Below, piece after piece: positions 51 through 47,056 of a stretch of 54,932 nt of DNA. Source of the DNA: a virus; IMG/VR virus record IMGVR_UViG_3300010413_000058, positions 1 to 54,932 of that record, one strand, 5' to 3'. Made by a program: the position numbers and the translations under genes. The stretch's first letter is position 1. Each line of letters begins with the position of its first letter. A model generated the notes under the pieces. That model had not been told where the DNA came from and searched no databases. It worked only from the letters and a program-made list of their open reading frames with translations.

Positions 51-1099
51 AAGCGAAGGATCGTAGAAAGCGAATGAGAGAGAAGTTGGCCCAGAGACAC
101 AAGGAGGCTTACGACAGGAAAGATTCTTGGGGAGCAAGCACAGGAATATTCAAATCCCCTCTGCCTGAGGGCGTAACTATGTGGAAATGTGGTGAGGGAG
201 AACATATGGTTGATATTATCCCTTTCATTGCAGGAGATAAAATACCTCCCCCTGACAAACCTGGAGAGGAGAGCTACATATTAGACATCTGGGTCCACAA
301 CAACGTAGGTCCATCAGACGCCAGATTTGTATGTCTGTCTCGGACCCTTGAACTGCCCTGTCCTATCTGCGAAGAGCAAGACAGGATGAGAGATTCAGAT
401 GGATATGATGATGACGAGATTAAAGCCTTGAACCCCAGCCGACGGGCAATATACAATATTATCTGCCGAGACAGCCCAAAAGAGGAAGCTAAAGGCATTC
501 AAGTTTGGGAAATAGCTCACTGGTTTATGGCTAAACATCTCGACGAGAGATCGAAAAAGCCTAAAGGCGGAGGCTACATCTACTATACATTGCTCGACGA
601 AGAAGGCAAAACAGTCTATTTCAAGAGGAAAGGTACAAGTCAGAGAGGTACTGAATTTCTAGCGCACGACTTCATTGACAGAGAAGAGCCTCTGGATGAG
701 AACCTAGTAGAGAAGGCACACCCTTTGGATCAGTTAATAGCGTGGCCTTCATACGATGAAGTGTACAACGCATTTCACAAGAAACCACCAAAGGCAGAAG
801 AGCCAGAACCTGAAGCGGCAGAAGAGCAAGAACCTGAAGCGGCAGAAGAGCAAGAACCTGAAGCGGAAAAACCTGAATCGGCAGAAGAGCCAGAGCCTGA
901 AGAACCTGAAGCGGAAAAACCTGAAGCGGAAGGTGAGCTTGTTTGTCCTGGTGGAGGCAAAGTCGGAATAGACTTCGAGGAACTTGAAGCTTGCAAGAAA
1001 TGTAAAATATGGGATGAGTGTGATGAGGAGTACACTCGGATCAAAAAACGCAGGGAAGAAAAGAAAAAGCCTGAATTGGCGAGGAGGAGTGGTAAATAA
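47..1099 (+). CDS. T4 gp32-like single-stranded DNA-binding protein with acidic repeat linker
   Basis: This 350-residue protein most likely coats single-stranded DNA during replication and recombination. The basic N-terminus, the central region with a CPIC zinc half-site (near residue 106) and the later Cys in IICRD resemble phage gp32-type proteins. Residues about 250-297 form a Glu/Pro-rich linker built from near-identical 24-bp DNA repeats (from about 809), matching the acidic tail that gp32-type proteins use to contact partners. A second Cys cluster follows (CPGGG, then CKKC and WDEC), before a basic end. Start ATG 47 has the site AAAGGAGG. It overlaps the recombinase gene by one base, and the neighbourhood (RecA-like, nucleases, SbcCD-like) supports the role. 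The family call is by motif and context only. Confidence 0.7.
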   Translation: MKAKDRRKRMREKLAQRHKEAYDRKDSWGASTGIFKSPLPEGVTMWKCGEGEHMVDIIPFIAGDKIPPPDKPGEESYILDIWVHNNVGPSDARFVCLSRTLELPCPICEEQDRMRDSDGYDDDEIKALNPSRRAIYNIICRDSPKEEAKGIQVWEIAHWFMAKHLDERSKKPKGGGYIYYTLLDEEGKTVYFKRKGTSQRGTEFLAHDFIDREEPLDENLVEKAHPLDQLIAWPSYDEVYNAFHKKPPKAEEPEPEAAEEQEPEAAEEQEPEAEKPESAEEPEPEEPEAEKPEAEGELVCPGGGKVGIDFEELEACKKCKIWDECDEEYTRIKKRREEKKKPELARRSGK

Positions 1100-3035: not shown

Positions 3036-3576
3036 AGGTGGGGACTTCGAGTTGGAGATCACAAAAGAACTAAGTCTGTGGATAACTGATGGGAAGAGCA
3101 AAGAAGTTTTTAGAAGAGGAAGGAGAGGAGGGAGGGGAGACATAACTTACAGAGAACCTATCGGAAAACCTTTGATAGACGCTTGGAATATAGAGTGCAA
3201 GACTGGGTATTCTAGGAAATATAAAGCCACCCTTAAAAAGAAAAGGAAGATAACTAATTGGTGTATCATAGACCCGATTGACTCACGTGGATCTAACACA
3301 GTCTTTCAGGACTTCTGGGAACAGTGCGCCGAAGACGCAGACAAGACAAAAAGAATCCCTATACTCATCTTCAGGAGACCTTACATGATGACCTGTATAG
3401 CTTTCCGTCAATCCTTGTTCAACAGGATGATAGAAATATACGGTCCTCCTAGAGGTCAATATGTACTCGCCAACGTATTTGGCGAGACTTTAGCAATACA
3501 AACTCTCAAACAATTTTTTGAATGGGTTCCAAACCCAAACCTGATTTTAATGCCTAAACTGGTGAGAAGAGTATGA
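3028..3576 (+). CDS. PD-(D/E)XK nuclease, Holliday-junction-resolvase-like
   Basis: A 182-residue probable DNA nuclease. The N-terminal part has the spacing of a PD-(D/E)XK core: an early Glu in GDFELEITKEL, a Gly/Arg-rich loop leading to GDITY, and the ECK tripeptide in WNIECKTGY. Archaeal-type resolvases and several phage recombination nucleases share this pattern. The start is TTG at 3028 behind GGAGGTG inside the previous gene. It lies between a 5' nuclease and the SbcC-like gene, with a four-base ATGA overlap to the latter. The fold is likely; resolvase rather than another nuclease is an inference. Confidence 0.65.
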   Translation: MSKGGDFELEITKELSLWITDGKSKEVFRRGRRGGRGDITYREPIGKPLIDAWNIECKTGYSRKYKATLKKKRKITNWCIIDPIDSRGSNTVFQDFWEQCAEDADKTKRIPILIFRRPYMMTCIAFRQSLFNRMIEIYGPPRGQYVLANVFGETLAIQTLKQFFEWVPNPNLILMPKLVRRV

Positions 3577-4688
3577 CAGTAGATGGAATAGAAATAAAAA
3601 ATGTCCAGCCACATGAACACACAATAATTGAACCTTCCAAAAGAGTAACAGTAATACAGGGCACATCTCATTCAGGAAAGTCCTCAATCGTCCGAGCAAT
3701 AAAGAAGCTCATAGAGAATAGACCTATGGGAAGAGAGGGGTTATTGTCTTGGTTTGCTAGTGACAAAGATGAAATAAGCATTGGGATGTCCTTTGAGGAA
3801 GGAACATACGTCTACAGGGAGCAAACTAAATCAGACAATAGATATACCACTAGTGAGAGCAAGAAACCGCTAAGAGCCATACGAAGTGATGTTCCAGAGG
3901 AAGTGTTGGCTATAACTAAAATGAACTCAGTTAATATACAGTCCCAGCATGACCCTTACTTCATGCTTCAAAACACTCCTGGAGAAGTTGGGCGGATGTT
4001 CAATGAAGCGGTAGGGCTGGAAATAATCGACGAAACTATTTCCCAAGCTAAAAAATTGTTCAACCTAATAAATGCTCAGAGAGCAGCTTGCTACAAGCAA
4101 GTGGAAGACTTGGAGAATGAGTTTTCTAGATACAAAGGATTAGATGAAATAAAACCTTTTATAGAAGACATAGAAAAAGCCTATGAACATTTAGGCATTC
4201 TGCAAGTCAGCAGAGAGAAGCTTCTGTCCTATTGGCTTGACATGGAAGTTCTTGAAGGAGACATTCTCTTGACGAAGGAGTTTCTCAAACTGGAAGATGA
4301 CTATAAGAAACTGCACTCCCTCGCCTCCCTCACGAATGCAAAGATTAGGAAAAGACAGGAAATATATGCCCATGTACTTGAATGGACAATGACTGAAGCC
4401 AGAATTGCTGTGAACAGAAAATGGGTAGATCAATATGAAAAATTCATAGAGATTCGGAATATCGCTCAGAACATGTCAAAATTGCGCTCAGATCGCATCA
4501 ACTTGAAACGTGTACTCAGATATATAATCGACACAAAAAACGAAATCCAAGCTAAAACCGAAGCATTATCTGACACTCGCAGAAAAATATACGAACTGTT
4601 ACAGAAGACTAAGATTTGTCCTTTCTGCTACACAGAAATTGACAGAGATACCATTGACCACATCTGCGAGAGGAGGGGGATAAAATGA
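3573..4688 (+). CDS. SbcC/Rad50/gp46-like ATPase, N-terminal half ending at the zinc hook
   Basis: This 371-residue protein carries the first half of a Rad50/SbcC-type SMC ATPase: Walker A GTSHSGKSS (residues 30-38), Q-loop region NIQSQHDPYF, then a long coiled coil with many Glu, Lys and Leu. It ends with a zinc-hook motif (Cys349-Pro-Phe-Cys352, and Cys365), just six residues before the stop. Full SbcC proteins place this hook in the middle of the chain. No Walker B or signature motif is present; both lie in the gene at 5867-6487. It overlaps the metallophosphoesterase gene by ATGA. The protein should assemble with that nuclease and the C-terminal half to process DNA ends. Confidence 0.85.
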   Translation: MTVDGIEIKNVQPHEHTIIEPSKRVTVIQGTSHSGKSSIVRAIKKLIENRPMGREGLLSWFASDKDEISIGMSFEEGTYVYREQTKSDNRYTTSESKKPLRAIRSDVPEEVLAITKMNSVNIQSQHDPYFMLQNTPGEVGRMFNEAVGLEIIDETISQAKKLFNLINAQRAACYKQVEDLENEFSRYKGLDEIKPFIEDIEKAYEHLGILQVSREKLLSYWLDMEVLEGDILLTKEFLKLEDDYKKLHSLASLTNAKIRKRQEIYAHVLEWTMTEARIAVNRKWVDQYEKFIEIRNIAQNMSKLRSDRINLKRVLRYIIDTKNEIQAKTEALSDTRRKIYELLQKTKICPFCYTEIDRDTIDHICERRGIK

Positions 4689-5623
4689 AGATACTGTGTG
4701 GTCCCGACTTGCACATCAGAGTAAGACCTCCAGAACACAGGATAGACGATTTTGTGGCGACACAGAAGCACAAGATAAAATGGATACTAAACCTAGCTAA
4801 GAAGAAAGATTGCAAACTAATATTGTTTCCTGGAGACCTTACAGACCATCCTAAACTTCCTCACCACATAATTGACCATTACATCAGGGTGTTCAGAAAC
4901 TACCCCAATCAAACTAAACTAGCTGTTAGAGGGCAACATGACATGCTCTACCATGTAGAGTCTGACAATACTCCTATATCAGTGATGGACGCCTCAGGGG
5001 CAGTCAACTTGATCGGCGGTGCCTACTATACTGCTTCTAGAGAGCCCAACATGGGGTGGGTCGTAATATATGGCGCAGACTTTGACCAACCCATTCCTGA
5101 AATACAGAACCCTGACCCTCTGCAAGTCAACATACTACTTATCCACAAGATGTTTGTCCTTGACAGATTGTGGGAAGGGCAGGAAGACTTTGTTAGGTCT
5201 TTGATTTTCTTGAAGACAACTAAATGGGACTTGATAGTGTCTGGTGACAATCACCAACATTATATGTCGTTCGCAAAAGGAGACAGATTTCACGTAAACT
5301 GTGGTTCTCTAATGAGACAGAGCATCGATCAAAAGAACCATAAACCTGTAGTCTACATTTACGATACAGAAGAGAGGACTCTGAAACATTATCATGTCCC
5401 CATAGATCCTATCGAGAAAGTAATGGACCTCGAGAAGGCAGAGGAAGACAAACAGCAAAGTCTAGAGCTTCAGGCATTCGTCGAAAGTATTCAGGAGACT
5501 ACAGAGATAGAAGGATTAGACTTTGTTAAGAATTTAACTAACAGACTCCAACAAGAAGATATTAGTCCAGGTGTAAAACAATTAGGAGAAGAAGTTCTAA
5601 AGAAAGCGGGTGAACTCACATGA
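4685..5623 (+). CDS. SbcD/Mre11/gp47-like metallophosphoesterase nuclease
   Basis: A 312-residue calcineurin-like nuclease, the partner of SbcC/Rad50 in end processing. Metal-ligand motifs appear in order: PDLH (Asp8, His10), PGDLTD (Asp51), RGQHD (His85, Asp86), LLIHK, and SGDNHQH. The third motif is GQHD where the family normally has GNHD, so the Asn ligand is replaced by Gln. The C-terminal 80 residues are charged and helical and may contact the SbcC coils. The gene lies between the two halves of the ATPase and overlaps neighbours on both sides by ATGA, so all four genes (3573-6487) look like one translational unit. Confidence 0.85.
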   Translation: MKILCGPDLHIRVRPPEHRIDDFVATQKHKIKWILNLAKKKDCKLILFPGDLTDHPKLPHHIIDHYIRVFRNYPNQTKLAVRGQHDMLYHVESDNTPISVMDASGAVNLIGGAYYTASREPNMGWVVIYGADFDQPIPEIQNPDPLQVNILLIHKMFVLDRLWEGQEDFVRSLIFLKTTKWDLIVSGDNHQHYMSFAKGDRFHVNCGSLMRQSIDQKNHKPVVYIYDTEERTLKHYHVPIDPIEKVMDLEKAEEDKQQSLELQAFVESIQETTEIEGLDFVKNLTNRLQQEDISPGVKQLGEEVLKKAGELT

Positions 5624-5880
5624 AAACAGATGAAATCATAGACAAACTGGAAGGTCTTGAGGAAGATTTTGAGGAAAAAAAGAAAAGTCTCGCTAGGGAT
5701 GAAGGCCGACTAGAATCTTTACAAGAGAGGATGGAGAAGGAGTTTGGCATTAAATCCTTGAAGAAAGCAGAGAGTGAGCTTATCAGATTGGATAAAGAGA
5801 TCGAAGAATCAGAAAAAGAACTCCACGAAAAGTACAAAAATATGAAAGAAGCGATGGAGAAGATCGATGTACAATCATAA
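5620..5880 (+). CDS. Small coiled-coil protein within the SbcCD-like cluster
   Basis: An 86-residue protein, almost entirely charged heptad-like helix rich in Glu, Lys and Leu, with no catalytic motif. It overlaps the nuclease gene by ATGA and the C-terminal ATPase half by 14 bases. Its position suggests it is a separated piece of the SbcC-like coiled coil, or a small adaptor for it. Alternatively it is unrelated and only co-transcribed. No family is recognised. Confidence 0.7.
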   Translation: MKTDEIIDKLEGLEEDFEEKKKSLARDEGRLESLQERMEKEFGIKSLKKAESELIRLDKEIEESEKELHEKYKNMKEAMEKIDVQS

Positions 5881-6487
5881 GGAATTTACAGAATACAAAA
5901 ACTGGTTTTATGAATTAGCAGGTCAACGTGATCTGCTAGAAGTTCAACTGAGAAGGGCTGAGGAAGAGAAAAACCTTCTGGATCAAGGATACGAAGATGC
6001 TTTGTTTTTAAGAGCATTAGTCCAAGAAGTAGCCCAACAGACGATGAATAATCTCTCCTATCACATATCCAATATAGTCACAGCAGCATTGAAAGCCATA
6101 CCTTTCCCTGATGCTCCTGAGTTTGAAGCCGAGTTCGTAAAAGGAAGAAATCAGGTTGAGTGTAACTTATGGTTTGTCACCAATGGCAACAAAAGCAAGC
6201 CTATAGAGTCTAGTGGAGGCGGAGCCCTCGACGTTACCTCTCTAGCATTGAGGCTCACCTACTGGTCTCTCAAAAAGAACCGACCCACCTTCATCCTCGA
6301 CGAGCCTTTCAAATACGTCTCTGTCGATCTCCAAGAGAAGTGTGCCGAGATGATCAAGATGCTGTCAGAGAGGATGGGTGTGCAGATCATTATGGTCAGT
6401 CATCTTCCCAACATCAACATCACCGCTGATAAAGAGTACAGGGTGGAGATGAAGGATGGGAAGAGTGTAGTGAAGGAAGTTAAATAG
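5867..6487 (+). CDS. SbcC/Rad50/gp46-like ATPase, C-terminal half
   Basis: This 206-residue protein supplies the second half of a Rad50/SbcC-like ATPase. After a short coiled-coil N-terminus come the ABC signature region SSGGGALDVTSLALRL (residues 115-130), Walker B with catalytic Glu in TFILDEPFKYVS (141-152) and the H-loop IIMVSHL (174-180). No Walker A is present. Together with the product of 3573-4688 it makes a complete head, so the ATPase is split at the hook. The start at 5867 has GGAG eight to nine bases upstream, inside the preceding gene. It is the last gene before the repeat-rich small-gene region. Confidence 0.85.
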   Translation: MYNHKEFTEYKNWFYELAGQRDLLEVQLRRAEEEKNLLDQGYEDALFLRALVQEVAQQTMNNLSYHISNIVTAALKAIPFPDAPEFEAEFVKGRNQVECNLWFVTNGNKSKPIESSGGGALDVTSLALRLTYWSLKKNRPTFILDEPFKYVSVDLQEKCAEMIKMLSERMGVQIIMVSHLPNINITADKEYRVEMKDGKSVVKEVK

Positions 6488-6499
6488 CATTTTAGCCAT

Positions 6500-6548
6500 G
6501 GGAACATCAGTAAGTGGGGGCCGACACCGCTGGCATCTTTTGGAGGGA
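6500..6548 (+). repeat. Structured intergenic repeat, copy A (5' half missing)
   Basis: Bases 6500-6536 are identical to 7037-7073 in copy B (37 bases). They carry the 3' stem arm ACCGCTGG and its neighbour GCCGAC, but the matching 5' arm CCAGCGGT is not found just upstream, so the copy looks truncated. It lies between the SbcC-like C-half and the next gene, and the ribosome binding site GGAGGG of that gene follows directly. Confidence 0.7.
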
Positions 6549-6555
6549 GTGATGT

Positions 6556-6942
6556 ATGGAAGAAGTAAAGAAAACAATACAAAGGTTACGGGATTATGTT
6601 GATGATGATCGTATAGTGGGTTACAGGCCCAGTGTACTCACCAGACCCATCTGTCGGTCAGACATTATCTTGGTATTGAAGCGCATCTCCGAGCTTGAAA
6701 AGCGCATCTCCGAGTTGGAGGATATGGTTGAAGTTGCTAGGTCAGTAAGAAAGGAAAGAATTAGAGAGCTTGAGCAGCAACTTATAATTAAATCAATTGA
6801 AGAACGTAGGGAAGAAGCACTAAAAATTGTTAAGAAATATACTGAAGAATACAAAAAGCTTGAGCAGGAGAACGCTCGGCTTCGTGAGGAAATTAAGGAA
6901 TTGAAACTCCGAATTGCTGATATGGAAACTTATTTACAGTAG
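6556..6942 (+). CDS. Coiled-coil protein of unknown function
   Basis: A 128-residue protein whose residues about 35-126 are continuous coiled coil. A local tandem duplication (ISELEKRISELE) repeats an 18-base unit near 6680-6717. There is no signal peptide, membrane segment or Cys motif. The start ATG 6556 follows GGAGGGAG with normal spacing; an ATG four bases earlier is in another frame. It is flanked by copies A and B of the structured repeat. The function is unknown. Confidence 0.7.
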   Translation: MEEVKKTIQRLRDYVDDDRIVGYRPSVLTRPICRSDIILVLKRISELEKRISELEDMVEVARSVRKERIRELEQQLIIKSIEERREEALKIVKKYTEEYKKLEQENARLREEIKELKLRIADMETYLQ

Positions 6943-6960
6943 ATGAGAGTGATGACACTT

Positions 6961-7080
6961 TGCCAGCGGTCTGCTTGGAAGCTATACGGCCTAGGACGCA
7001 TAGTGGAGGGCAGTGTGGGGGAGGACAGTCGGCATTGGGAACATCAGTAAGTGGGGGCCGACACCGCTGGCATTTAAGGA
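6961..7080 (+). repeat. Structured intergenic repeat, copy B (complete)
   Basis: A ten-base stem pairs 6961-6970 (TGCCAGCGGT) with 7063-7072 (ACCGCTGGCA). A second stem pairs 7028-7033 (GTCGGC) with 7057-7062 (GCCGAC) and abuts the first, so the two could stack. Between them lies a further possible hairpin, CTATACG with CGCATAG. The 149-base gap 6943-7091 is otherwise empty of genes. The repeat ends a few bases before the ribosome binding site AAGGAGGGAG of the zinc-ribbon gene at 7092. Confidence 0.75.
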
Positions 7081-7091
7081 GGGAGAAAGAA

Positions 7092-7268
7092 ATGGCAGAT
7101 GCAGATGATAAAATCATACCTTGGATTCCAGAGGATCAAGGAGAGGGTATTAAGGATTTCTTTTCTGGGTATGTAACACGTTGCCCGAAATGTAACTCTA
7201 TGAATATTTGGCAGATGTTTATGGCTCATTACGGCTGTTTAGACTGTAAGCATAAATGGGGGGAGTGA
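7092..7268 (+). CDS. Small zinc-ribbon protein
   Basis: A 58-residue protein with two Cys pairs, CPKC (about residues 33-36) and CLDC (about 50-53), spaced as a zinc ribbon and surrounded by aromatic residues. The N-terminus is acidic. ATG 7092 is preceded by AAGGAGGGAG, which is directly downstream of repeat copy B; an in-frame upstream ATG at 6960 would run through the repeat and is rejected. Its TGA overlaps the next ATG by one base. Its partner is unknown. Confidence 0.75.
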   Translation: MADADDKIIPWIPEDQGEGIKDFFSGYVTRCPKCNSMNIWQMFMAHYGCLDCKHKWGE

Positions 7269-7474
7269 TGGATAAGCCTTGGATAGTTGGAAGATGGGAT
7301 ATTTGCCCAAAACTTCATGCAATGAATGACATGGGCATTGATTCAGAGCGAACCACAAAAGCAGGTAGGCGTATTTATAGCAGAACACGTACCTATAATG
7401 CCGAATGCTATGCTGAAAAAGATGGAGAAAGGTGTACTCGTCGTGGAAGGTGTATCTTGGCATACACAGACTAG
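7268..7474 (+). CDS. Small Cys-containing protein of unknown function
   Basis: A 68-residue basic protein with four scattered Cys residues (ICPK, ECYAE, RCTRRG, RCIL), which might bind a metal. The start at ATG 7268 overlaps the preceding stop (TGATG) and has GGGGGAG upstream. No family is recognised. Confidence 0.65.
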   Translation: MDKPWIVGRWDICPKLHAMNDMGIDSERTTKAGRRIYSRTRTYNAECYAEKDGERCTRRGRCILAYTD

Positions 7475-7490
7475 GCAGTGGGGGTGAGGG

Positions 7491-7634
7491 ATGGAAATCA
7501 TTGTTGAGTGCGTAGAGTGTGGTTCAATACTAGAGCAAAACAAAACCACGATAAAATGGGGAGATGTAGTTATCCAAGTGATTCCATGCGACTGCATTAA
7601 TATGGAGCCAGAAATCGCCAAACAAGCATTGTAG
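7491..7634 (+). CDS. Very small zinc-ribbon-like protein
   Basis: The reading frame from ATG 7491 encodes 47 residues beginning MEIIVECVECG, with a second Cys pair CDC near residue 33. This CxxC plus CxC arrangement is that of a minimal zinc knuckle. GGGGTGAGGG precedes the start. It lies between the gene at 7268 and repeat copy C. Nothing more can be said of its role. Confidence 0.6.
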   Translation: MEIIVECVECGSILEQNKTTIKWGDVVIQVIPCDCINMEPEIAKQAL

Positions 7635-7642
7635 GAATAAGT

Positions 7643-7720
7643 CCAGCGGTCCCGAAAGGGTGGGCATGGGATGTCGGCACAAGGAAGGCGTGGGAGCTGA
7701 CACCGCTGGCATTTAAGGAG
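7643..7720 (+). repeat. Structured intergenic repeat, copy C (short form)
   Basis: An eight-base stem pairs 7643-7650 (CCAGCGGT) with 7702-7709 (ACCGCTGG). The abutting second stem pairs 7673-7678 (GTCGGC) with 7696-7701 (GCTGAC), keeping pairing through a G-U where copy B has G-C. A small GAAA-capped hairpin (CCCGAAAGGG, 7651-7660) occupies the variable part. Total length is about 68 bases against 112 in copy B. The site AAGGAG of the next gene follows. Confidence 0.75.
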
Positions 7721-7726
7721 AAAGTG

Positions 7727-7894
7727 ATGAGTTGGACAAAAGTGGGAAGTTGCCCTCATTGTGGGGCACCAATTTATGAACCAATGGTCTGGCATGGAGT
7801 ATTGCCGCCACCGCCGCAATACACTTGTGCCTGTGCGCCAAAAGTGGAAACAAAGACAAAGTGGAAACAAAGACAAGCAATAATACAAGTATAG
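7727..7894 (+). CDS. Very small zinc-ribbon-like protein
   Basis: The frame ATG 7727 to TAG 7892-7894 encodes 55 residues: MSWTKVGSCPHCG at the start, a proline run (LPPPPPQ), then a CAC pair and a basic tail. The Cys pairs suggest a zinc knuckle. The site AAGGAG lies just after repeat copy C. No family is recognised. Confidence 0.6.
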   Translation: MSWTKVGSCPHCGAPIYEPMVWHGVLPPPPQYTCACAPKVETKTKWKQRQAIIQV

Positions 7895-7904
7895 ATAAAT
7901 AAGT

Positions 7905-8001
7905 CCAGCGGTCTAGGTGCTGATGAAGAGGGTGGGCTGTCAGCTTAAACTACTGGATAAAGCAGAATAGGGGTAGGTCGACACCGCTGCATTTAAGGAG
8001 G
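7905..8001 (+). repeat. Structured intergenic repeat, copy D (divergent)
   Basis: The stem pairs 7906-7912 (CAGCGGT) with 7983-7989 (ACCGCTG). The second stem can pair 7939-7946 with 7975-7982 in seven of eight positions, two of them G-U, and again abuts the outer stem. The middle is unlike copies B and C. The trailing CATTTAAGGAGGGAG is as in copy B and includes the ribosome binding site of the next gene at 8007. Confidence 0.7.
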
Positions 8002-8006
8002 GAGTA

Positions 8007-8120
8007 ATGACAGTAAAATGCCGTAATTGTGGTTATATATGGAAGGGAAAGATAAGAGAACCCGCTCCAATGTATTGTCCTTGTTGCAACCATACTGCGT
8101 GTTGGTGGACATTCTGGTAG
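8007..8120 (+). CDS. Tiny zinc-ribbon protein (37 residues)
   Basis: The frame ATG 8007 to TAG 8118-8120 gives 37 residues with two clean Cys pairs, CRNC (5-8) and CPCC (24-27), and several Trp residues at the end (ACWWTFW). This is the minimal rubredoxin-knuckle or zinc-ribbon arrangement. GGAGGGAG lies directly upstream, after repeat copy D. Confidence 0.65.
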   Translation: MTVKCRNCGYIWKGKIREPAPMYCPCCNHTACWWTFW

Positions 8121-8148
8121 ATTTGAAAAGGGTTTACAGGAGTAGGAG

Positions 8149-8547
8149 ATGAGTGATTATATAGTTCAGCATGTTATGGAGATTGTGAAAAAAATACACG
8201 ATGATACTGGGGTGAGATTGAAAGAGTTCTCAGTGACATGGGGGTACAGCTTAGATATAGGTCGCTGTTTCGTTGGTGGAGGCAGGGTTGAAGTCTTCCC
8301 ACTAGAAGGCCATCAGTTAGATGCGGACTACTTCACTCGCATTATAGACACTGCTAGTAAGGCTTACGAGAGATGGAATGTGATGTTTAAAAAATTCACT
8401 TTTGATTGGAAAGATGACGAATTAGAAGGGTGTCACTATAGGTGGGAAAGGGAAGAAGATGAGCAAACAAGCGAAGAGAGGACGGAAGTCGAAGAAGGAA
8501 CAGAAGAAAGCCAAAAAGAGAAGGATGAAGAAAAGCAGAAAAGGTAA
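8149..8547 (+). CDS. Unknown protein with a strongly acidic C-terminal tail
   Basis: A 132-residue protein: an alpha/beta-looking N-terminal part (residues 1-100) without a recognised motif, followed by about 30 residues that are nearly all Glu, Lys, Gln and Asp. The N-terminal third (KIHDDTGVRLKEFSVTWGYS) is reminiscent of small conserved phage proteins, but I cannot name the family. The start has GGAGTAGGAG upstream. Its tail-coding DNA is also open in another frame (see 8459-8560). Confidence 0.65.
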   Translation: MSDYIVQHVMEIVKKIHDDTGVRLKEFSVTWGYSLDIGRCFVGGGRVEVFPLEGHQLDADYFTRIIDTASKAYERWNVMFKKFTFDWKDDELEGCHYRWEREEDEQTSEERTEVEEGTEESQKEKDEEKQKR

Positions 8548-8560
8548 GGGTGGGAAATGA
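8459..8560 (+). CDS. Candidate overlapping gene for a 33-residue highly basic peptide
   Basis: In the +1 frame relative to the acidic tail of 8149-8547, ATG 8459 opens a 33-residue frame that is more than half Lys and Arg (begins MSKQAKRGRKSKKEQ). AAAGGGAAGAAG lies upstream, and its TGA at 8558-8560 overlaps the following ATG at 8557 as ATGA, like the next three junctions. It may be a nucleic-acid-binding peptide, or merely the alternate reading of GAA/AAG-rich DNA. Confidence 0.3.
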   Translation: MSKQAKRGRKSKKEQKKAKKRRMKKSRKGKGGK

Positions 8561-8715
8561 GGCCTCCCTCATGGATGGATCAGGGTAAATACTGCCTTCT
8601 CTACAAAGAGTGCGGATGGTTTAAGGTAGAACAATTCATCAAAGAAGGTAGCTGTCATCTGAGATTAAAATGCACAGGGACATGGCACAGTTGCCCTATG
8701 AGGAAAAGAAAATGA
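8557..8715 (+). CDS. Small Cys-rich protein
   Basis: ATG 8557 to TGA 8713-8715 encodes 52 residues with five Cys residues, two Trp pairs and a basic end (CPMRKRK). The gene overlaps the next by ATGA. It may bind zinc, but the Cys spacing is irregular (positions 13, 19, 33, 39, 46). No family is recognised. Confidence 0.55.
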   Translation: MRPPSWMDQGKYCLLYKECGWFKVEQFIKEGSCHLRLKCTGTWHSCPMRKRK

Positions 8716-8852
8716 GAACTCGATGCTGCAAGTGTGGAATTAAGTACAGTAAGAAAAAAGGTAAGGGTCTAACGTGGAGAGACAGATTTGAGAATGAACA
8801 CTGGACATGCGACAAGTGCGTCCCAAAATTAGGATGGAGACAGGGAAAATGA
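8712..8852 (+). CDS. Small zinc-ribbon protein
   Basis: ATG 8712 gives 46 residues, MRTRCCKCGIKYSKKKG then DRFENEHWTCDKC, with two Cys pairs as in a zinc ribbon. I prefer it to the upstream in-frame ATG at 8670 because it overlaps the previous stop as ATGA, the local pattern. It in turn overlaps the next gene by ATGA. Confidence 0.65.
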   Translation: MRTRCCKCGIKYSKKKGKGLTWRDRFENEHWTCDKCVPKLGWRQGK

Positions 8853-9121
8853 TAGAAATACAATACGCTAAATCTTCCTCGTTGAAGATTGAGCTAATAC
8901 GGTTTTTTAATAAAGGAAAATCGCAACTTGCCTTAGTCAAGTGCTCTTTACTTATAAATGGAATTCCTATTGCAGAAACCACTAAGGCTTTGGAAGCAGG
9001 TAGTACATTGGAATTTTCTAACCATCAAGCCGTTATGAATCAGATAAGTTACGAAGGATTGGAGCCTTTACTCGAAAACATCGAGAAGGTTAAAGGCCTG
9101 CTCTTACCTACAGGAGAATAA
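8849..9121 (+). CDS. Unknown small protein
   Basis: A 90-residue protein with alternating hydrophobic and polar residues that suggests a small beta-rich fold, without Cys clusters or membrane segments. The start at ATG 8849 overlaps the preceding stop (ATGA). It ends the chain of four overlapping small genes; the next gene has its own strong site. Confidence 0.6.
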   Translation: MIEIQYAKSSSLKIELIRFFNKGKSQLALVKCSLLINGIPIAETTKALEAGSTLEFSNHQAVMNQISYEGLEPLLENIEKVKGLLLPTGE

Positions 9122-41695: not shown

Positions 41696-42081
41696 TCAAT
41701 TTCCTCCAACCAGCCGTTCAGCACAGTCTCACCAACGTAACTGGCTATATTTACAGGATACAATCTTTTGTCGTGCAGCACAACATTATTTCTGAAGATC
41801 CGAGGACATTTATCAATTCCTTCACTTGATCGTCTGTACAGACTCAAATAATCGAACTGATCGCAATAAAAGAACGTCGGGAGTGCGTCGGATAGCGACT
41901 CTGTTAAGCGTTCGTCGTCATAGATATACAAAACATAGTCTGTCGATACTCCGAACTCTGAGAACGTCGGATCGAAGTCTGCTATAATCGTAGCCACAGG
42001 TAATTTGCCAAGTGACTCGATGCACTTCTCTCTCATCCTTTTATCTTCTTTCCCCGACCTCAGAACGATTGCCGTTAACAC
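41692..42081 (-). CDS. Reduced GT2-like glycosyltransferase
   Basis: This 129-residue protein looks like a shrunken GT2 enzyme. It keeps the block YVLYIYDDERLTES (acidic triad at residues 55-57), and then PRIFRNNVVL matching the 'Rlfr' element that follows in full GT2 enzymes such as the one at 45968-46708. The nucleotide-binding N-terminus is short. It may be a remnant or a partner subunit. GTG 42081 follows AAGGAG, and it overlaps the radical SAM stop by one base. Confidence 0.5.
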   Translation of the reverse strand: MLTAIVLRSGKEDKRMREKCIESLGKLPVATIIADFDPTFSEFGVSTDYVLYIYDDERLTESLSDALPTFFYCDQFDYLSLYRRSSEGIDKCPRIFRNNVVLHDKRLYPVNIASYVGETVLNGWLEEIE

Positions 42082-43316
42082 TACTTCAATTTCTCCTTAT
42101 CCTTATACTTCGCTTCCATCATGTCCCTCAATTCAACTATCCTCTCTGAAGACAGTCCTTCAGTGGACACAGTGGATTTGTAACTACCAGGAATCCCTTT
42201 GTACCACATTGGGGCACTATTGTATTGGAACTTTATGTCCCAGAGTTCTGGTTTCTCGAAGACAGGTGATCCTGGTAGCGGCTGGAAAACCGTGAAATCA
42301 ACGTCATCGGGTCTCGCCTCCTCGATCCACCTTTGTGTATCCAATATAGTGCCTTCAGTCTCTCCAGGTAGACCAACGATAAGAAACGCCTTGCATCTGA
42401 TTCCTGCTTTTCTGAGTGCCCATACAGCCTCAAGATTGCGTTGCGTAGTCGTTCCTTTGAGGTTCTTTTGGAGTATTTCGTCTGATCCACTCTCTACCCC
42501 CATTCCGACCTCTACTACACCCATTCGGGCTAAGTAGCTGGCAGTCTGGTCGTCTATAAGGTTGGACCGAGCAAAACACCTGAACCTGTAATCCTTCTGT
42601 CCAAAATATTCAGCTAACTCTCTTGTCCTCTTCCTACTCGTTACAAATACGTCATCAAAGATCATAAAAGCCTCAAACCCATATTCTTTATTCAAATGCT
42701 CGACTTCTCTGATCACGTATTTGGAGGAGGCTTGACGAAACTTTCGGGTTATTCTGGCGCAGAAGGAACAATGAAATGGGCAACCCCTCGAAGTCATCAG
42801 CGTAGTGGCGGGGCGAGAATCGATTGTGTAGTGATATTTCTTGATGTCAATGAGATCACGGGCAGGAAGGGGGAGGCGATCTATAGAGACTAAATCCGAC
42901 GTATTCCCAAGCACTTTCTCGTCACATTGCATCCCGCTTGTAAGATATAACATCAGAGCAGTCAACGCCATCTCCCCTTCGCCCTTGATCACATAATCAA
43001 AACCATTCTCAATGCACTCATGGGGCATATGGGTAGCGTGAGGTCCTCCTGCTATTAGAGTCTTTCCCTCTTTCTTCAACTGCCTAGCTATCCTATATGC
43101 TTGATCTCTCTGTGGGGTAGTCAGTGAGATACCTACTATGTTAGATTCCACTCTAACCAAATCATTGAAATCCGCAGCAGCCAAATCAATCACCTGAACC
43201 GTATATCCCCAATCTCTCAACACAGCCGCAAGATAAAGTATCCCAAGAGGGGGAAACACCTCTTGATCAATCAGAAAAGGACTGCTGGGGAATATTAAGG
43301 AAATGTCACAAGTCAT
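42081..43316 (-). CDS. B12-binding-type radical SAM enzyme
   Basis: A 411-residue enzyme of the radical SAM superfamily. Residues 1-135 resemble a cobalamin-binding Rossmann domain (FPPLGILYLAAVLRDWGY, IAGGPHATHMPHECI, YVIKGEGE). The 4Fe-4S site is Cys179, Cys183 and Cys186 (SRGCPFHCSFC). Later blocks VEVGMGVESGSDEIL and FLIVGLPGETEGT are standard for the family. This class methylates or rearranges unreactive carbons. It is flanked by methyltransferase and glycosyltransferase genes, so a glycan or lipid-linked substrate is likely but not shown. The start overlaps the preceding gene by 11 bases. Confidence 0.88.
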   Translation of the reverse strand: MTCDISLIFPSSPFLIDQEVFPPLGILYLAAVLRDWGYTVQVIDLAAADFNDLVRVESNIVGISLTTPQRDQAYRIARQLKKEGKTLIAGGPHATHMPHECIENGFDYVIKGEGEMALTALMLYLTSGMQCDEKVLGNTSDLVSIDRLPLPARDLIDIKKYHYTIDSRPATTLMTSRGCPFHCSFCARITRKFRQASSKYVIREVEHLNKEYGFEAFMIFDDVFVTSRKRTRELAEYFGQKDYRFRCFARSNLIDDQTASYLARMGVVEVGMGVESGSDEILQKNLKGTTTQRNLEAVWALRKAGIRCKAFLIVGLPGETEGTILDTQRWIEEARPDDVDFTVFQPLPGSPVFEKPELWDIKFQYNSAPMWYKGIPGSYKSTVSTEGLSSERIVELRDMMEAKYKDKEKLK

Positions 43317-43860
43317 ATCTTAACCTCTGAAACACCACATCAATCGTACAGGATCTATCATGGGGTATAGTGTCAATTTGAACTAACTTCAATAGGGGAA
43401 GGCGGGTCATTATATTCTGAATAAAAGGTTTTCCCACATTTACTTGATGGCTGGGATTTCCCCCTTCTTCTACCGTAGCATACCTTCCCCCTTGCATGTC
43501 AGGGAGCAGGAGAACTAAATACCCTTCAGGTCTGATCAATCTTCTCGCCCATCCATTGAGACAAGCAATGATTTCGTTTTCTGTTGGCAGGTCTTCAACC
43601 ATGTGGCTGCTGAAGACAAAATCGACAGGCTCGTAATGTACATACCGCACAGCATCCCAGTGAATAAACCTTCCCTCTGGAACTTGCATTTCACAAAGGG
43701 GTTGAGGAGATATGTCAACATGATAACAATCACCCAGAAGAAGAGGGCAACTGCCGCAGCCCATATCAAGACCCCGACCCTGAAGATAAGCCGCAACGTG
43801 TCCAACATTGAAGTCGAACTCGACCCTGACATTTTTTACGTCCTCCAAGCTATACTCCAT
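43306..43860 (-). CDS. Class I SAM-dependent methyltransferase
   Basis: A 184-residue enzyme. Motif I is GRGLDMGCGSCPLLLGD, a second acidic block follows (YHVDISPQPLC), and then FVFSSHMVEDLP and RLIRPEGYLVLLLPDMQGG, the usual order for small-molecule or sugar methyltransferases. It overlaps the GT4 gene by 11 bases and the radical SAM gene by 11. The substrate is unknown. Confidence 0.75.
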   Translation of the reverse strand: MEYSLEDVKNVRVEFDFNVGHVAAYLQGRGLDMGCGSCPLLLGDCYHVDISPQPLCEMQVPEGRFIHWDAVRYVHYEPVDFVFSSHMVEDLPTENEIIACLNGWARRLIRPEGYLVLLLPDMQGGRYATVEEGGNPSHQVNVGKPFIQNIMTRLPLLKLVQIDTIPHDRSCTIDVVFQRLRYDL

Positions 43861-44920
43861 TTAATTCCCCTGTCACATCCGTAACAAAACCCCTCTCTTT
43901 AACAATCTCAAAAAACCTTAGATGTCTCTCTGCCATTATTTTACTTGTGAATCTATGCTCGTACAGACGCCTACAGGATTCTCTAGAGATACTATCAATT
44001 TGCTTGAGGGCATCAACAGAGGATTGAATGGCTTGTTCTCTTTGTTCATGGGAATAGCCATCGTGATTAATAATGAATCCATGTTTTCCATGCTCTATTA
44101 TTTCACCTCCATTGTAGTTAATAGCTGAAGGTTCTTGAGAGTTTCCCCAACCTATAACAGGAACACCACACGCCAAAGACTCTAAGTTTATTACACCTAA
44201 CATCTCGTGGTACCCATTGAATATAGGATTAATTAGAGCCTTTGCCCTCCTCCAAACTCTGTATTTAATCTCGTCATCACATCCTCTTAACCATATGATC
44301 TGCCGTCCATCCACTTTTGGGAGTACATTATCATGGCAAAAAGGGTAGTGATAAGCAGGACCTATAAGGATAAGTCTCTCCCCTGCCCTCTTAGCTATAT
44401 CTATGGCTATGTCAGGGCACTTACCTGGGTCCATTCTTCCTATCCACAATGAAAAATTGTCGTGATCTTTGTCCCATTCTGGGTAAATCCATTCAGGAAC
44501 TCCATGATAAATCAAAGTACCTATCCCACCACTAACACTTTTGATTTTTTTAGAGTAAACTACCTTATTCTTGTCAATTCGGGGCAAATTGAAAAAGGGT
44601 TCTATAGTGAAAGGCCAATTACTTCTCAGATCATGGCTAATATAACCGGAGCCCATAAATGAATGTACATGGTCGAACTTTTTGTTTTTCTCAACCTCAT
44701 ACGCCTTAATTGCCTCAAGATAAATATCCCGATCGTCTTCCCAGGGGACCGACATCTCGACGAACTCAAATCCAGGCAAATCACACCCTTTTATAGAAAA
44801 CACAACACACTCATGCCCTATATCTCTCCACTCTCTAATCAAGTAATAGATGAGCCTTTCAGCCCCATAAATATGTCCTTCGCCGAATGGGTGGGCGTAG
44901 CCCAATACTGCGATTCTCAT
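43850..44920 (-). CDS. GT4-family glycosyltransferase
   Basis: A 356-residue GT-B enzyme. It begins MRIAVLGYAHPFGEGHIYGA, a GT4 N-terminus, with FSLWIGRMDPGKCPDIAIDI at the second domain, then LESLACGVPVIGWG, which contains the Glu-x7-Glu-type donor region, and a terminal helix. ATG 44920 overlaps the zinc-ribbon stop (ATGA) and follows AAGGAGTTGGGATT; the upstream ATG at 44953 is rejected. It probably adds a sugar to a growing glycan. Confidence 0.82.
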   Translation of the reverse strand: MRIAVLGYAHPFGEGHIYGAERLIYYLIREWRDIGHECVVFSIKGCDLPGFEFVEMSVPWEDDRDIYLEAIKAYEVEKNKKFDHVHSFMGSGYISHDLRSNWPFTIEPFFNLPRIDKNKVVYSKKIKSVSGGIGTLIYHGVPEWIYPEWDKDHDNFSLWIGRMDPGKCPDIAIDIAKRAGERLILIGPAYHYPFCHDNVLPKVDGRQIIWLRGCDDEIKYRVWRRAKALINPIFNGYHEMLGVINLESLACGVPVIGWGNSQEPSAINYNGGEIIEHGKHGFIINHDGYSHEQREQAIQSSVDALKQIDSISRESCRRLYEHRFTSKIMAERHLRFFEIVKERGFVTDVTGELNGV

Positions 44921-45231
44921 AATCCCAACTCCTTTAGCCGTTCTCTCTGCCATTGTTTCAATGTTTCGCCTACCGCTGTGTGCAATCTATTACCACACAC
45001 TGAACAAAAATTCACATCACCAAACAATTCAACCACCTGTTTGTGAAAACACGGGGTATTTATCTCTGTCTCAGAAAACAAAGGGGGAGGTACGTTAGGT
45101 TGCACATTGTCAACCCAATACATATCTCCACAGTAGGGACACCGATGTTTGCCTGGCACGATCTCAAAATCTGGCATACGCCAGAACCTGCCACACCCCA
45201 AACACATGTATCTATCCGTTGCTCTCCCCAT
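44917..45231 (-). CDS. Zinc-ribbon protein inside the glycan island
   Basis: A 104-residue protein with three Cys pairs: CLGC (about 10-13), CPYC (about 31-34) and CSVC (about 76-79), plus Cys61. The first two form a zinc ribbon; the third may form a second site. ATG 45231 overlaps the preceding stop (TGATG) behind AAAGGATTAGG. It may bind a partner enzyme or nucleic acid. The role is unknown. Confidence 0.65.
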   Translation of the reverse strand: MGRATDRYMCLGCGRFWRMPDFEIVPGKHRCPYCGDMYWVDNVQPNVPPPLFSETEINTPCFHKQVVELFGDVNFCSVCGNRLHTAVGETLKQWQRERLKELGL

Positions 45232-45968
45232 CACCTAATCCTTTCTGCCCACAGTTGGCCGTGACCTAACTTTGTGTGCTTGTGACTCCATTTTTTCTTT
45301 TCATTCTTAGCAAACCAGTGAAGAAACTCAAAATTCTGAGTCTCCACAATATCATCAAAGACCACAATACTTCCAATCTTTGAATAATCCCTAAAAAGCT
45401 TCCACTCCCTTATTATATGTTCAGTCGTGTGCAAAGTATCTTGAAAACAGAAATCCCATTCACCAATTCTAGGCATGACTTCTGTAAGGGTGTCATACGT
45501 CAATCCCTCTATGAACTCAACCTCAACATTCTTTAATCCTTTCATCTCCTCCAATCTCTTATTTCTCTTCTCAATCACTAATCCCCAAGACTTCCACCCT
45601 CTGGCACACACATGCTTTTCAGGGAAGTTCTTCCAATCGACTATTGGTCCTTCTTCAAAAGTTGGAGCGCAGCCATAAGGCTCCCCGAGAGAGTTAGCAG
45701 GAGAATGACCTACATCAAACGTGTATAACTTCCCTCCCCCATATTCACTCATTGCCTTAGCTATTTTATAAGTACCATAGCCCTCAAAAGTTCCCAGCTC
45801 CATTACTACATCGGGCTGCAAGACCAACAACGCTTGCACAATCATATCCATATTTGCATTGTCATGGACCCAGGGTCGCATAAAAGCCTCTGCCACACAT
45901 TCTTCGTGTGTTATTCCTTCACTCACTCTGGGCTTTATAGTATCCCAATTGTTTTCTAGAAATTCCAT
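45231..45968 (-). CDS. SAM-dependent methyltransferase (Methyltransf_24 type)
   Basis: A 245-residue enzyme. Motif I is VVMELGTFEGYGTYKIAKAM, followed by LYTFDVG. A central region FCFQDTLHTTEHIIREWKLF and SIVVFDDIVETQNFEFLHWF resembles class I methyltransferases of the type often found beside glycosyltransferases (including cephalosporin-hydroxylase-like ones). ATG 45968 overlaps the GT2 stop (TGATG) behind GGAAGGAC. The substrate is unknown. Confidence 0.72.
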   Translation of the reverse strand: MEFLENNWDTIKPRVSEGITHEECVAEAFMRPWVHDNANMDMIVQALLVLQPDVVMELGTFEGYGTYKIAKAMSEYGGGKLYTFDVGHSPANSLGEPYGCAPTFEEGPIVDWKNFPEKHVCARGWKSWGLVIEKRNKRLEEMKGLKNVEVEFIEGLTYDTLTEVMPRIGEWDFCFQDTLHTTEHIIREWKLFRDYSKIGSIVVFDDIVETQNFEFLHWFAKNEKKKWSHKHTKLGHGQLWAERIR

Positions 45969-46708
45969 CAATAGTCCTTCCAGTAGCCAGGGTTAGCACA
46001 TTCAATAATCTGTCTTTTTGGAGTTGTCTCGAATACATCGTGAGTAAGACCTAACTGTTTTCTTCTCGCTTGAGCCCTCAACCACAATTTCTCAATCCTA
46101 ACCCTATCCCGATAATCATCCTTCTCAAAATGCTCCAGATCAGATTCAAATTTATAGTACGGCAAATCTTGAGGCCAAAGCACATGATGAGGACTATTTA
46201 CCCAGTGCATTCCAACCTCTCTCATTATCAATCTGCATTGGTAGTCAGGGTACTGACCTATTTGATGACTGATCAAGGGCCACCCATCCACTGAACTAGG
46301 AATTGCATAAGGTGATTCGGGAAATCGCAAAGGCTCATAAGTCCTGCGAGGCACATGGCCAACTTTATAGTAAAACCCACCCTCCTTGAAAGTTTTGTCC
46401 ACAAACTCCAGTTCCCTCTTGAGCCCATCTGTTAATCGCTCGTCGAAGTCGAGGATGAAACACATCTGCCCATGTGGAATATAGGAAAGAGCGATGTTGC
46501 TTTGGGTCGTTTCCATATCGTGAAACCAGTTGAGCCACGGGTGTATGAAGACTTCCGGTTTCTCGTACTCTCTGAGGGCTTGGACAGTGAAATCTGTACT
46601 GCCCCCATCAACCACAATAATTCTTTCAAAGTAAGATTCATTATGGACATTTTTCATTACCCTTTCTACTTGTTTCTCTTCGTTCAGACACTTCATTAGA
46701 AGAATCAC
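45968..46708 (-). CDS. GT2-family glycosyltransferase
   Basis: A 246-residue GT-A enzyme. It opens MILLMKCLNEEKQVERVMKN, with VDGGSTDFTVQAL (nucleotide binding), and CFILDFDERLTDGL with a metal-binding DFDE (87-90). Then come YQCRLIMREVGMHWVNSPHH and acceptor-side residues. This is the WaaE-like or small GT2 style. GTG 46708 follows AAAGGAGTACAATC. It is followed by a methyltransferase through TGATG. Confidence 0.82.
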   Translation of the reverse strand: MILLMKCLNEEKQVERVMKNVHNESYFERIIVVDGGSTDFTVQALREYEKPEVFIHPWLNWFHDMETTQSNIALSYIPHGQMCFILDFDERLTDGLKRELEFVDKTFKEGGFYYKVGHVPRRTYEPLRFPESPYAIPSSVDGWPLISHQIGQYPDYQCRLIMREVGMHWVNSPHHVLWPQDLPYYKFESDLEHFEKDDYRDRVRIEKLWLRAQARRKQLGLTHDVFETTPKRQIIECANPGYWKDY

Positions 46709-46720
46709 GATTGTACTCCT

Positions 46721-47056
46721 TTACTTTAATCCTTTCTTCTTTTCTTCCAATTCCTTTATCTCCCGCTCTAAATTCAAACAATCGGTCTGTGCAGGTTGGG
46801 GCATACGTATGCAGTCTCTTGTTCCATATTGCTTGTACATCTGGTACAACATATCACGCTTGGTAGATATTCGGATGTCAACAAACTCAGCTTTGGAGAA
46901 AGCGGCTAAGAACTCTATCTTATCCTGTGTCTGCTCAAACTGCTCTTTGGTTTCTTCACAGGCTGTGAGGAAATCATTCATAGGAGTAAAATAGGATATT
47001 GCCCCTATCGTAGCCGCCACTATTGCTATCGCCACTGTTATATCCTTCCACGTCAT
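46721..47056 (-). CDS. Small membrane-anchored coiled-coil protein
   Basis: A 111-residue protein with an N-terminal hydrophobic segment (about 6-24, ITVAIAIVAATIGAISYF), then a charged helical part (about 31-55) and a C-terminal coiled coil (LEREIKELEEKKKGLK). Two Cys residues are in the later region. It overlaps the GT4-GT9 gene by ATGA and may tie glycan enzymes to the membrane. The function is not known. Confidence 0.6.
   Translation of the reverse strand: MTWKDITVAIAIVAATIGAISYFTPMNDFLTACEETKEQFEQTQDKIEFLAAFSKAEFVDIRISTKRDMLYQMYKQYGTRDCIRMPQPAQTDCLNLEREIKELEEKKKGLK

What the first reader, a model, noticed from the sequence alone, without database searches (positions are those of the whole stretch)
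6500..8006. Family of structured repeats placed before the ribosome sites of tiny genes
Four gaps (copies A-D) share an outer stem CCAGCGGT/ACCGCTGG, an inner stem GTCGGC/GCCGAC directly stacked on it, and an end CATTTAAGGAG that is itself the ribosome binding site. Pairing is kept between copies by a G-U change in copy C, and the middle is variable in length, so the shape is conserved more than the sequence. This suggests a cis-acting RNA or a mobile repeat unit carrying small genes. I know of no named element with this shape.
Basis: partly seen in the sequence, partly recalled or inferred. Interest (0 to 1): 0.8.

Follow-up and report, generated by a model that had tools for sequence, protein, structure and literature searches.

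The report
Start-site repeats joining shuffled phage genes
An uncultured tailed virus repeats a GC-rich leader, sometimes able to fold into a hairpin, just before the ribosome site of tiny variable genes; genes appear to be swapped between related viruses exactly at this leader, much like the 'start-associated' repeats known from mycobacterium phages.

Summary
The repeat family is real. Copies lie before the genes at 6556, 7092, 7727 and 8007. B, C and D carry both stems; A has only the right half. Arm complementarity exceeds shuffles clearly in B and C, weakly in D. No pair changes on both sides, so 'shape conserved more than sequence' is not supported; the most conserved part is the right arm plus ribosome site.

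Exact-pattern scans found true copies only in this virus and two relatives from one metagenome (L005/L080, L008/L081); all other hits were coding coincidences. In L081 two right-half copies precede other tiny genes. Homology between the two viruses ends at the ribosome site after copy A, and a 144-bp identical block starts at the ribosome site after copy C: the repeats mark joints of gene exchange.

Best reading: a start-associated leader that works like SAS/ESAS elements of cluster K mycobacteriophages and T4-type PeSLs, giving each acquired gene a ready translation start (perhaps with a hairpin or operator) and a short recombination homology. Function is inferred. It fails the sequence and promoter criteria of those families, so it is a new variant of a known kind.

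The parts
6499..6549 (+). Copy A, right half only: TGGGAACATCAGTAAGTGGGG-GCCGACACCGCTGGCA-TCTTTTGGAGG, before the 128-aa gene 6556-6942; its first 38 nt are identical to copy B 7036-7073
6963..7081 (+). Copy B, full: left arms CCAGCGGT (6963-6970) and GTCGGC, right arms GCCGACACCGCTGG (7057-7070), CATTTAAGGAG to 7081; before tiny gene 7092
7643..7720 (+). Copy C, full: CCAGCGGT...GTCGGC...GCTGACACCGCTGG-CATTTAAGGAG; before tiny gene 7727
7905..8000 (+). Copy D, full but decayed: CCAGCGGT...GTCAGC...GTCGACACCGCTG-CATTTAAGGAG (one G deleted, one inner mismatch); before tiny gene 8007
6556..6942 (+). 128-aa gene (coiled-coil-like) behind copy A
7092..7268 (+). 58-aa CxxC...CxxC (zinc-ribbon-like) gene behind copy B
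7268..7474 (+). 68-aa gene, overlapping start, no own repeat
7491..7634 (+). 47-aa CxxC gene, no own repeat
7727..7894 (+). 55-aa CxxC gene behind copy C; 7715-7858, beginning at AAGGAG, is identical in virus L081, where no repeat precedes the gene
8007..8120 (+). 37-aa CxxC...CxxC gene behind copy D
6258..6535 (+). Block shared with virus L081: last part of the SbcC-like gene plus copy A; 14 differences in 6258-6462, none in 6463-6535; homology is lost at the ribosome site

Best explanation
The units are start-associated leader repeats of a tailed virus. The constant part is a right arm plus Shine-Dalgarno block (GCCGACACCGCTGGCA followed by TTTAAGGAG or YCTTTTGGRGG), placed a few bases before the ATG of small genes; about half of the copies also carry matching left arms and thus an inverted repeat with variable inserts. 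Shown: the copies, their placement, their presence before different genes in a related virus, and breaks of homology at the joint. Inferred: the block gives whichever gene lies behind it a standard translation start (in full copies a hairpin would hold the arms away from the Shine-Dalgarno, or the inverted repeat binds a regulator), and the repeats serve as short homologies at which the virus's own recombination proteins (UvsX-like, gp32-like, SbcD-like, encoded next door) swap tiny genes between viruses.
For: Every gap over 30 nt between the genes from 5867 to 9121 holds a copy; the other junctions overlap or are at most 28 nt. Right-half copies recur twice in L008/L081 before other tiny genes. 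In L081 the same upstream gene plus copy A is followed by a different gene, homology being lost at the ribosome site; the gene behind copy C is 144/144 identical in L081 starting at AAGGAG but with unrelated upstream DNA and no repeat, while neighbouring proteins are only 51-68% identical. Copies A and B share 38 identical nt. The last 73 nt of the shared block, through copy A, are unchanged while 205 coding bases before them have 14 differences (P about 0.012, segments chosen after the fact). Elements are 52-63% GC against 40-46% in the small genes. In isolated full copies the Shine-Dalgarno is predicted 0.91-0.99 unpaired. Recombination genes.
Against: Only six distinct copies in two virus types, from short-read assemblies; the 144-bp shared block ends at the contig end of L081, so its far boundary is unknown. 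With flanking sequence the predicted openness of the ribosome site is only 0.17-0.98 and lowest in the half copies E and F. No sigma-70-type promoter or + strand terminator at the copies. No expression data, host unknown. Short conserved blocks could be by-products of gene conversion rather than of function.
Confidence: 0.6

Rival explanations
1. A cis-acting structured RNA (leader element) in which the outer and inner stems form in the mRNA and control translation or processing of the gene behind it.
For: Arms of B and C pair 14/14, rarely reached in shuffles; copy B is predicted to form both stems with probability 0.95-0.97 and the ribosome site stays free; high GC.
Against: No change on both sides of any pair, covariation score below the shuffle mean; C forms the stems at 0.5-0.6 and D's outer stem at 0.26; fold z-scores -1.4, -1.0, +0.7; three of six copies lack the left arms.
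Confidence: 0.25
2. A DNA-level inverted repeat: operator or promoter region for a phage regulator, as proposed for ESAS elements (with a SigA-like promoter in Adephagia).
For: Same architecture as ESAS: inverted repeat with variable spacer before a conserved start-site block, in gaps over 50 bp (PMC3203893, PMC11373665); the arm sequence is invariant rather than covarying.
Against: No sigma-70-type promoter on the + strand at the copies; left arms split by inserts of 22-57 nt; half copies lack the dyad.
Confidence: 0.3
3. A transposon-like or integron-like mobile unit (MITE, IS200/605 end, attC site) that moves itself and its gene by a site-specific enzyme.
For: Inverted ends exactly at the unit's borders; cassette-like alternation of repeat and small gene.
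Against: No target-site duplication; no RYYYAAC/GTTRRRY core; the exchanged block starts at the ribosome site and leaves no repeat in L081; no copies elsewhere in the virus or in the bacterial genomes scanned. Absence of a transposase or integrase was not searched exhaustively.
Confidence: 0.05
4. Neutral leftovers: a spacer duplicated a few times by recombination, with no function.
For: A and B share 38 identical nt, a recent duplication or conversion; D is decayed.
Against: Arms and start block are kept while the inserts differ completely; persistence in a virus whose proteins differ by 30-50%; unusually high GC for gaps.
Confidence: 0.15

Closest known systems
[quoted passage not shown]
   Same: Conserved block covering the ribosome site a few bases before the ATG of a subset of non-structural genes, in gaps over 50 bp; about half of the sites with an upstream inverted repeat with variable spacer; copies before unrelated genes in relatives; one orientation; essentially absent outside the group.
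   Different: Different sequence; 8+6-nt arms with an insert in the left arm instead of 17-bp repeats; arms nearly perfectly complementary; only 4 copies in one cluster of genes; no SigA-like promoter found; unknown host; joints of gene exchange seen at the repeat.
PeSLs (promoter-early stem-loops) of T4-type phages and the analogous motif of haloarchaeal virus HGTV-1 (Arbiol et al. 2010 and Comeau et al. 2014, known here only through citations in PMC3950731 and PMC4503421)
   Same: Repeated stem-loop-capable motif before genes in a variable region, associated with shuffling of genes between related phages.
   Different: PeSLs combine an early promoter with a stem-loop; no promoter or forward terminator was recognised here; sequence unrelated as far as can be told.
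Integron attC sites
   Same: Imperfect inverted repeat with variable middle next to small gene cassettes.
   Different: No consensus core; lies before the start site rather than after the gene; no integrase seen; exchange joints at the Shine-Dalgarno.

Membership tests
SAS/ESAS elements | Well conserved block at the ribosome site within a few nt of the start codon of several genes | tested here: met
   all four window copies and both L081 copies end in the Shine-Dalgarno a few nt before an ATG
SAS/ESAS elements | 13-bp consensus GGGATAGGAGCCC (cluster K) or GGGAAAGGACCCC (cluster EF) | tested here: not met
   Consensus here is GGCATTTAAGGAG / GGCAYCTTTTGGRGG
SAS/ESAS elements | Imperfect 17-bp inverted repeat with variable spacer upstream of about half of the sites | tested here: inconclusive
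   3 of 6 copies have an inverted repeat, but of 8+6 nt with an insert in the left arm
SAS/ESAS elements | SigA-like -35/-10 within the ESAS (Adephagia) | tested here: not met
   no + strand promoter-like site at the copies; host sigma factors unknown
PeSLs | Early promoter joined to a stem-loop | tested here: not met
   only sigma-70-type promoters were tested
PeSLs | Joints of gene shuffling between related phages | tested here: met
   two joints only
Structured RNA family (Rfam type) | Compensatory base changes in the stems | tested here: not met
   0 pairs with changes on both sides, but only 3 sequences
Structured RNA family (Rfam type) | Match to a described family | tested here: not met
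Integron attC | R'' RYYYAAC / R' GTTRRRY core sites at the arms | tested here: not met
   Read directly from the copies B-D printed
MITE / transposon end | Target-site duplication at the borders | tested here: not met
   longest shared flank word 3-4 nt, at unequal offsets

The most novel reading that the evidence does not exclude
A phage lineage uses a portable 5' leader (hairpin plus ribosome site) as a plug-in socket: any tiny gene recombined behind it is at once expressed, so that the leader itself is selected as a device for acquiring fast-changing host-takeover or anti-defence genes, arisen independently of the SAS/ESAS and PeSL lineages.
Probability: 0.2. Interest if true: 0.65.

Novelty: new variant of a known kind. 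Interest (0 to 1): 0.42.

Why it matters
It adds an unrelated virus lineage to the short list (cluster K and EF phages, T4-type phages, HGTV-1) in which a repeated start-site leader marks a variable region of small genes. If such leaders arise again and again, they may be a general solution for expressing newly acquired genes, and the leader can serve as bait to find fast-evolving phage genes, as conserved regulatory sequences were used to find anti-defence genes in archaeal viruses (PMC11065993). The function of SAS/ESAS is itself still open.

Tried and rejected
Pattern scans of viral contigs: hits to ACCGCTGGCATTTAAGGAG in L003, L004 and L006 are the end of a coding sequence before the next head gene; CCAGCGGT..GACACCGCTGG (L009-L020), GCCGACACCGCTGGCA (L021-L074 apart from L025) and the loose right-arm pattern (L086-L099) sit in coding-like contexts without the start-site layout, judged from the printed flanks. 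Two bacterial genome hits (L075, L076) are coding coincidences. BLASTN of copy C against phages gave only chance pieces, of the whole region none. Protein searches for relatives led back to the same two viruses plus a fragment (L079) that ends before the locus. A covariance model was not built: MAFFT misaligned copy B's left arm, and three sequences with invariant stems would give little more than a sequence model; arms were counted directly instead. Coding repeat: copy B is open in frame with its gene (TTG at 6960) but C and D are not, and the - strand frame shifts in D, so rejected. A hammerhead-like CTGATGA in D lacks a GAAA partner and was dropped. A homologue of the gene behind copy C in another virus contig (L101, 71% over 38 aa) has no repeat, so that gene also travels without it. 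In one search copy C was cut one base short; one search is the corrected run. The two PeSL papers are not held.

Full report
Setting. The window is a virus record of 54,932 bases of a tailed virus: major head protein (phrog_29), S49-type protease, gp32-like protein, 5'-3' exonuclease, PDDEXK nuclease, SbcD-like phosphoesterase and a UvsX-like recombinase. The finding lies directly behind this replication/recombination block, at the start of a stretch of tiny genes, several with CxxC pairs like zinc ribbons. No close relative is in the phage collection.

Observation. Copies B, C and D each hold CCAGCGGT, an insert x (57/22/26 nt), GTCGGC or GTCAGC, an insert y (23/17/32 nt), then GCCGAC/GCTGAC/GTCGAC joined to ACCGCTGG (ACCGCTG in D), then CATTTAAGGAG, the ribosome site. 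Copy A has only the right half and a different ending, CATCTTTTGGAGG. All four are confined to 6499-8000 in the window. All gaps longer than 30 nt among the genes from 5867 to 9121 hold a copy. The elements are GC-rich (52-63%) against 40-46% in the neighbouring small genes.

More than chance. With right arms fixed and the left sequence shuffled, pairing as good as observed arose in 0.17%, 0.09% and 2.2% of shuffles for B, C and D. The three are homologous copies, so these are not independent tests. The constant end ACACCGCTGGCATTTAAGGAG has no expected chance match in the window.

RNA shape or not. Counting pairs on the arms, 40 of 41 cells pair, 12 of 14 pairs never vary, two vary on one side (G-U), none on both. 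That neither proves nor excludes an RNA. Predicted stems are firm in B (0.95-0.97), half-formed in C (0.5-0.6) and weak in D's outer stem (0.26), and total stability is not unusual. No Rfam family matches.

Copies elsewhere. Pattern scans of the viral contigs found true copies only in IMGVR 3300009509_000906 (99.9% identical to the window, contains A and B) and 3300009509_000571 (L008/L025/L081), a related virus with 51-68% protein identity. The latter has two right-half copies (here called E and F), GCCGACACCGCTGGCACCTTTTGG, each before a different tiny gene. The bacterial genome scan gave two coding coincidences. Of six distinct copies, three carry the left arms (all with CATTTAAGGAG) and three do not (all with CAYCTTTTGGRGG).

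Gene exchange at the joint. Between the window and L081 the end of the SbcC-like gene and copy A are shared; the last 73 nt, including the whole noncoding leader up to the ribosome site, are identical, whereas 205 coding bases just before carry 14 differences (P about 0.012, with segments chosen after the fact), and homology ends at the ribosome site. Separately, the gene behind copy C is identical over 144 bp in L081, starting exactly at AAGGAG, but there it follows another gene directly, without a repeat. Copies A and B share 38 identical bases. These are two joints only, from short-read assemblies, and L081 ends inside the second block. A distant homologue of that gene occurs in another virus without a repeat.

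How it most likely works. Shown: placement, recurrence before different genes, joints at the ribosome site. Inferred: the constant right arm plus ribosome site is a ready-made translation start for whatever gene lies behind it; the left arms add a hairpin or a binding site; and repeats of 38-50 nt offer homology to the virus's own UvsX-type recombination. No sigma-70-type promoter or forward terminator is seen at the copies. Against a simple 'keeps the ribosome site open' role, folding with flanks leaves the site only partly open in several copies, least in E and F.

Known relatives in kind. Cluster K mycobacteriophages carry 13-bp start-associated sequences 3-7 bp before start codons of non-structural genes with gaps over 50 bp, about half with an upstream imperfect 17-bp inverted repeat with variable spacer; the authors found little support for mRNA hairpins and thought DNA-binding sites more likely (PMC3203893). 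Adephagia's ESAS contain a SigA-like promoter (PMC11373665), and a different pair of motifs with the same layout exists in Microbacterium cluster EF phages (PMC7302621). T4-type PeSLs and a motif of the haloarchaeal virus HGTV-1 are linked to gene shuffling (cited in PMC3950731 and PMC4503421). The present element works like these by layout, but fails their sequence and promoter criteria, so it is not filed as a member: a new variant of a known kind.

Verdict.

Noticed in passing
window 7092-8852: At least four tiny genes here (58, 55, 37 and 46 aa, plus a 47-aa one with a single CxxC) encode CxxC-type zinc-ribbon-like proteins; the first gene behind a repeat in L008 (8666-8839) is another. 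A cluster of interchangeable zinc-ribbon proteins is unusual.
   Followed up: partly
window 6258-6487 against L081: The C-terminal part of the SbcC-like protein is almost identical between two viruses whose neighbouring proteins are only 51-68% identical, pointing to recent recombination inside the gene.
   Followed up: yes
window 3573-6487: The SbcC-like protein seems split into separate genes (N-terminal ATPase part 3573-4688, C-terminal part 5867-6487) with the SbcD-like gene and a small coiled-coil gene between them; the same order is in L081.
   Followed up: no
window 42081-49113: Among the structural genes lies a run that looks like glycosyltransferases and methyltransferases, with a B12-binding radical SAM gene (42081-43316), unusual cargo for a tailed virus.
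   Followed up: no
window 7841-7874: Perfect tandem duplication of 17 nt (AAAGTGGAAACAAAGAC) inside the gene 7727-7894; contig L081 ends inside it.
   Followed up: no
window 758-938: In-frame Glu/Pro/Ala-rich repeats near the end of the gp32-like gene.
   Followed up: no
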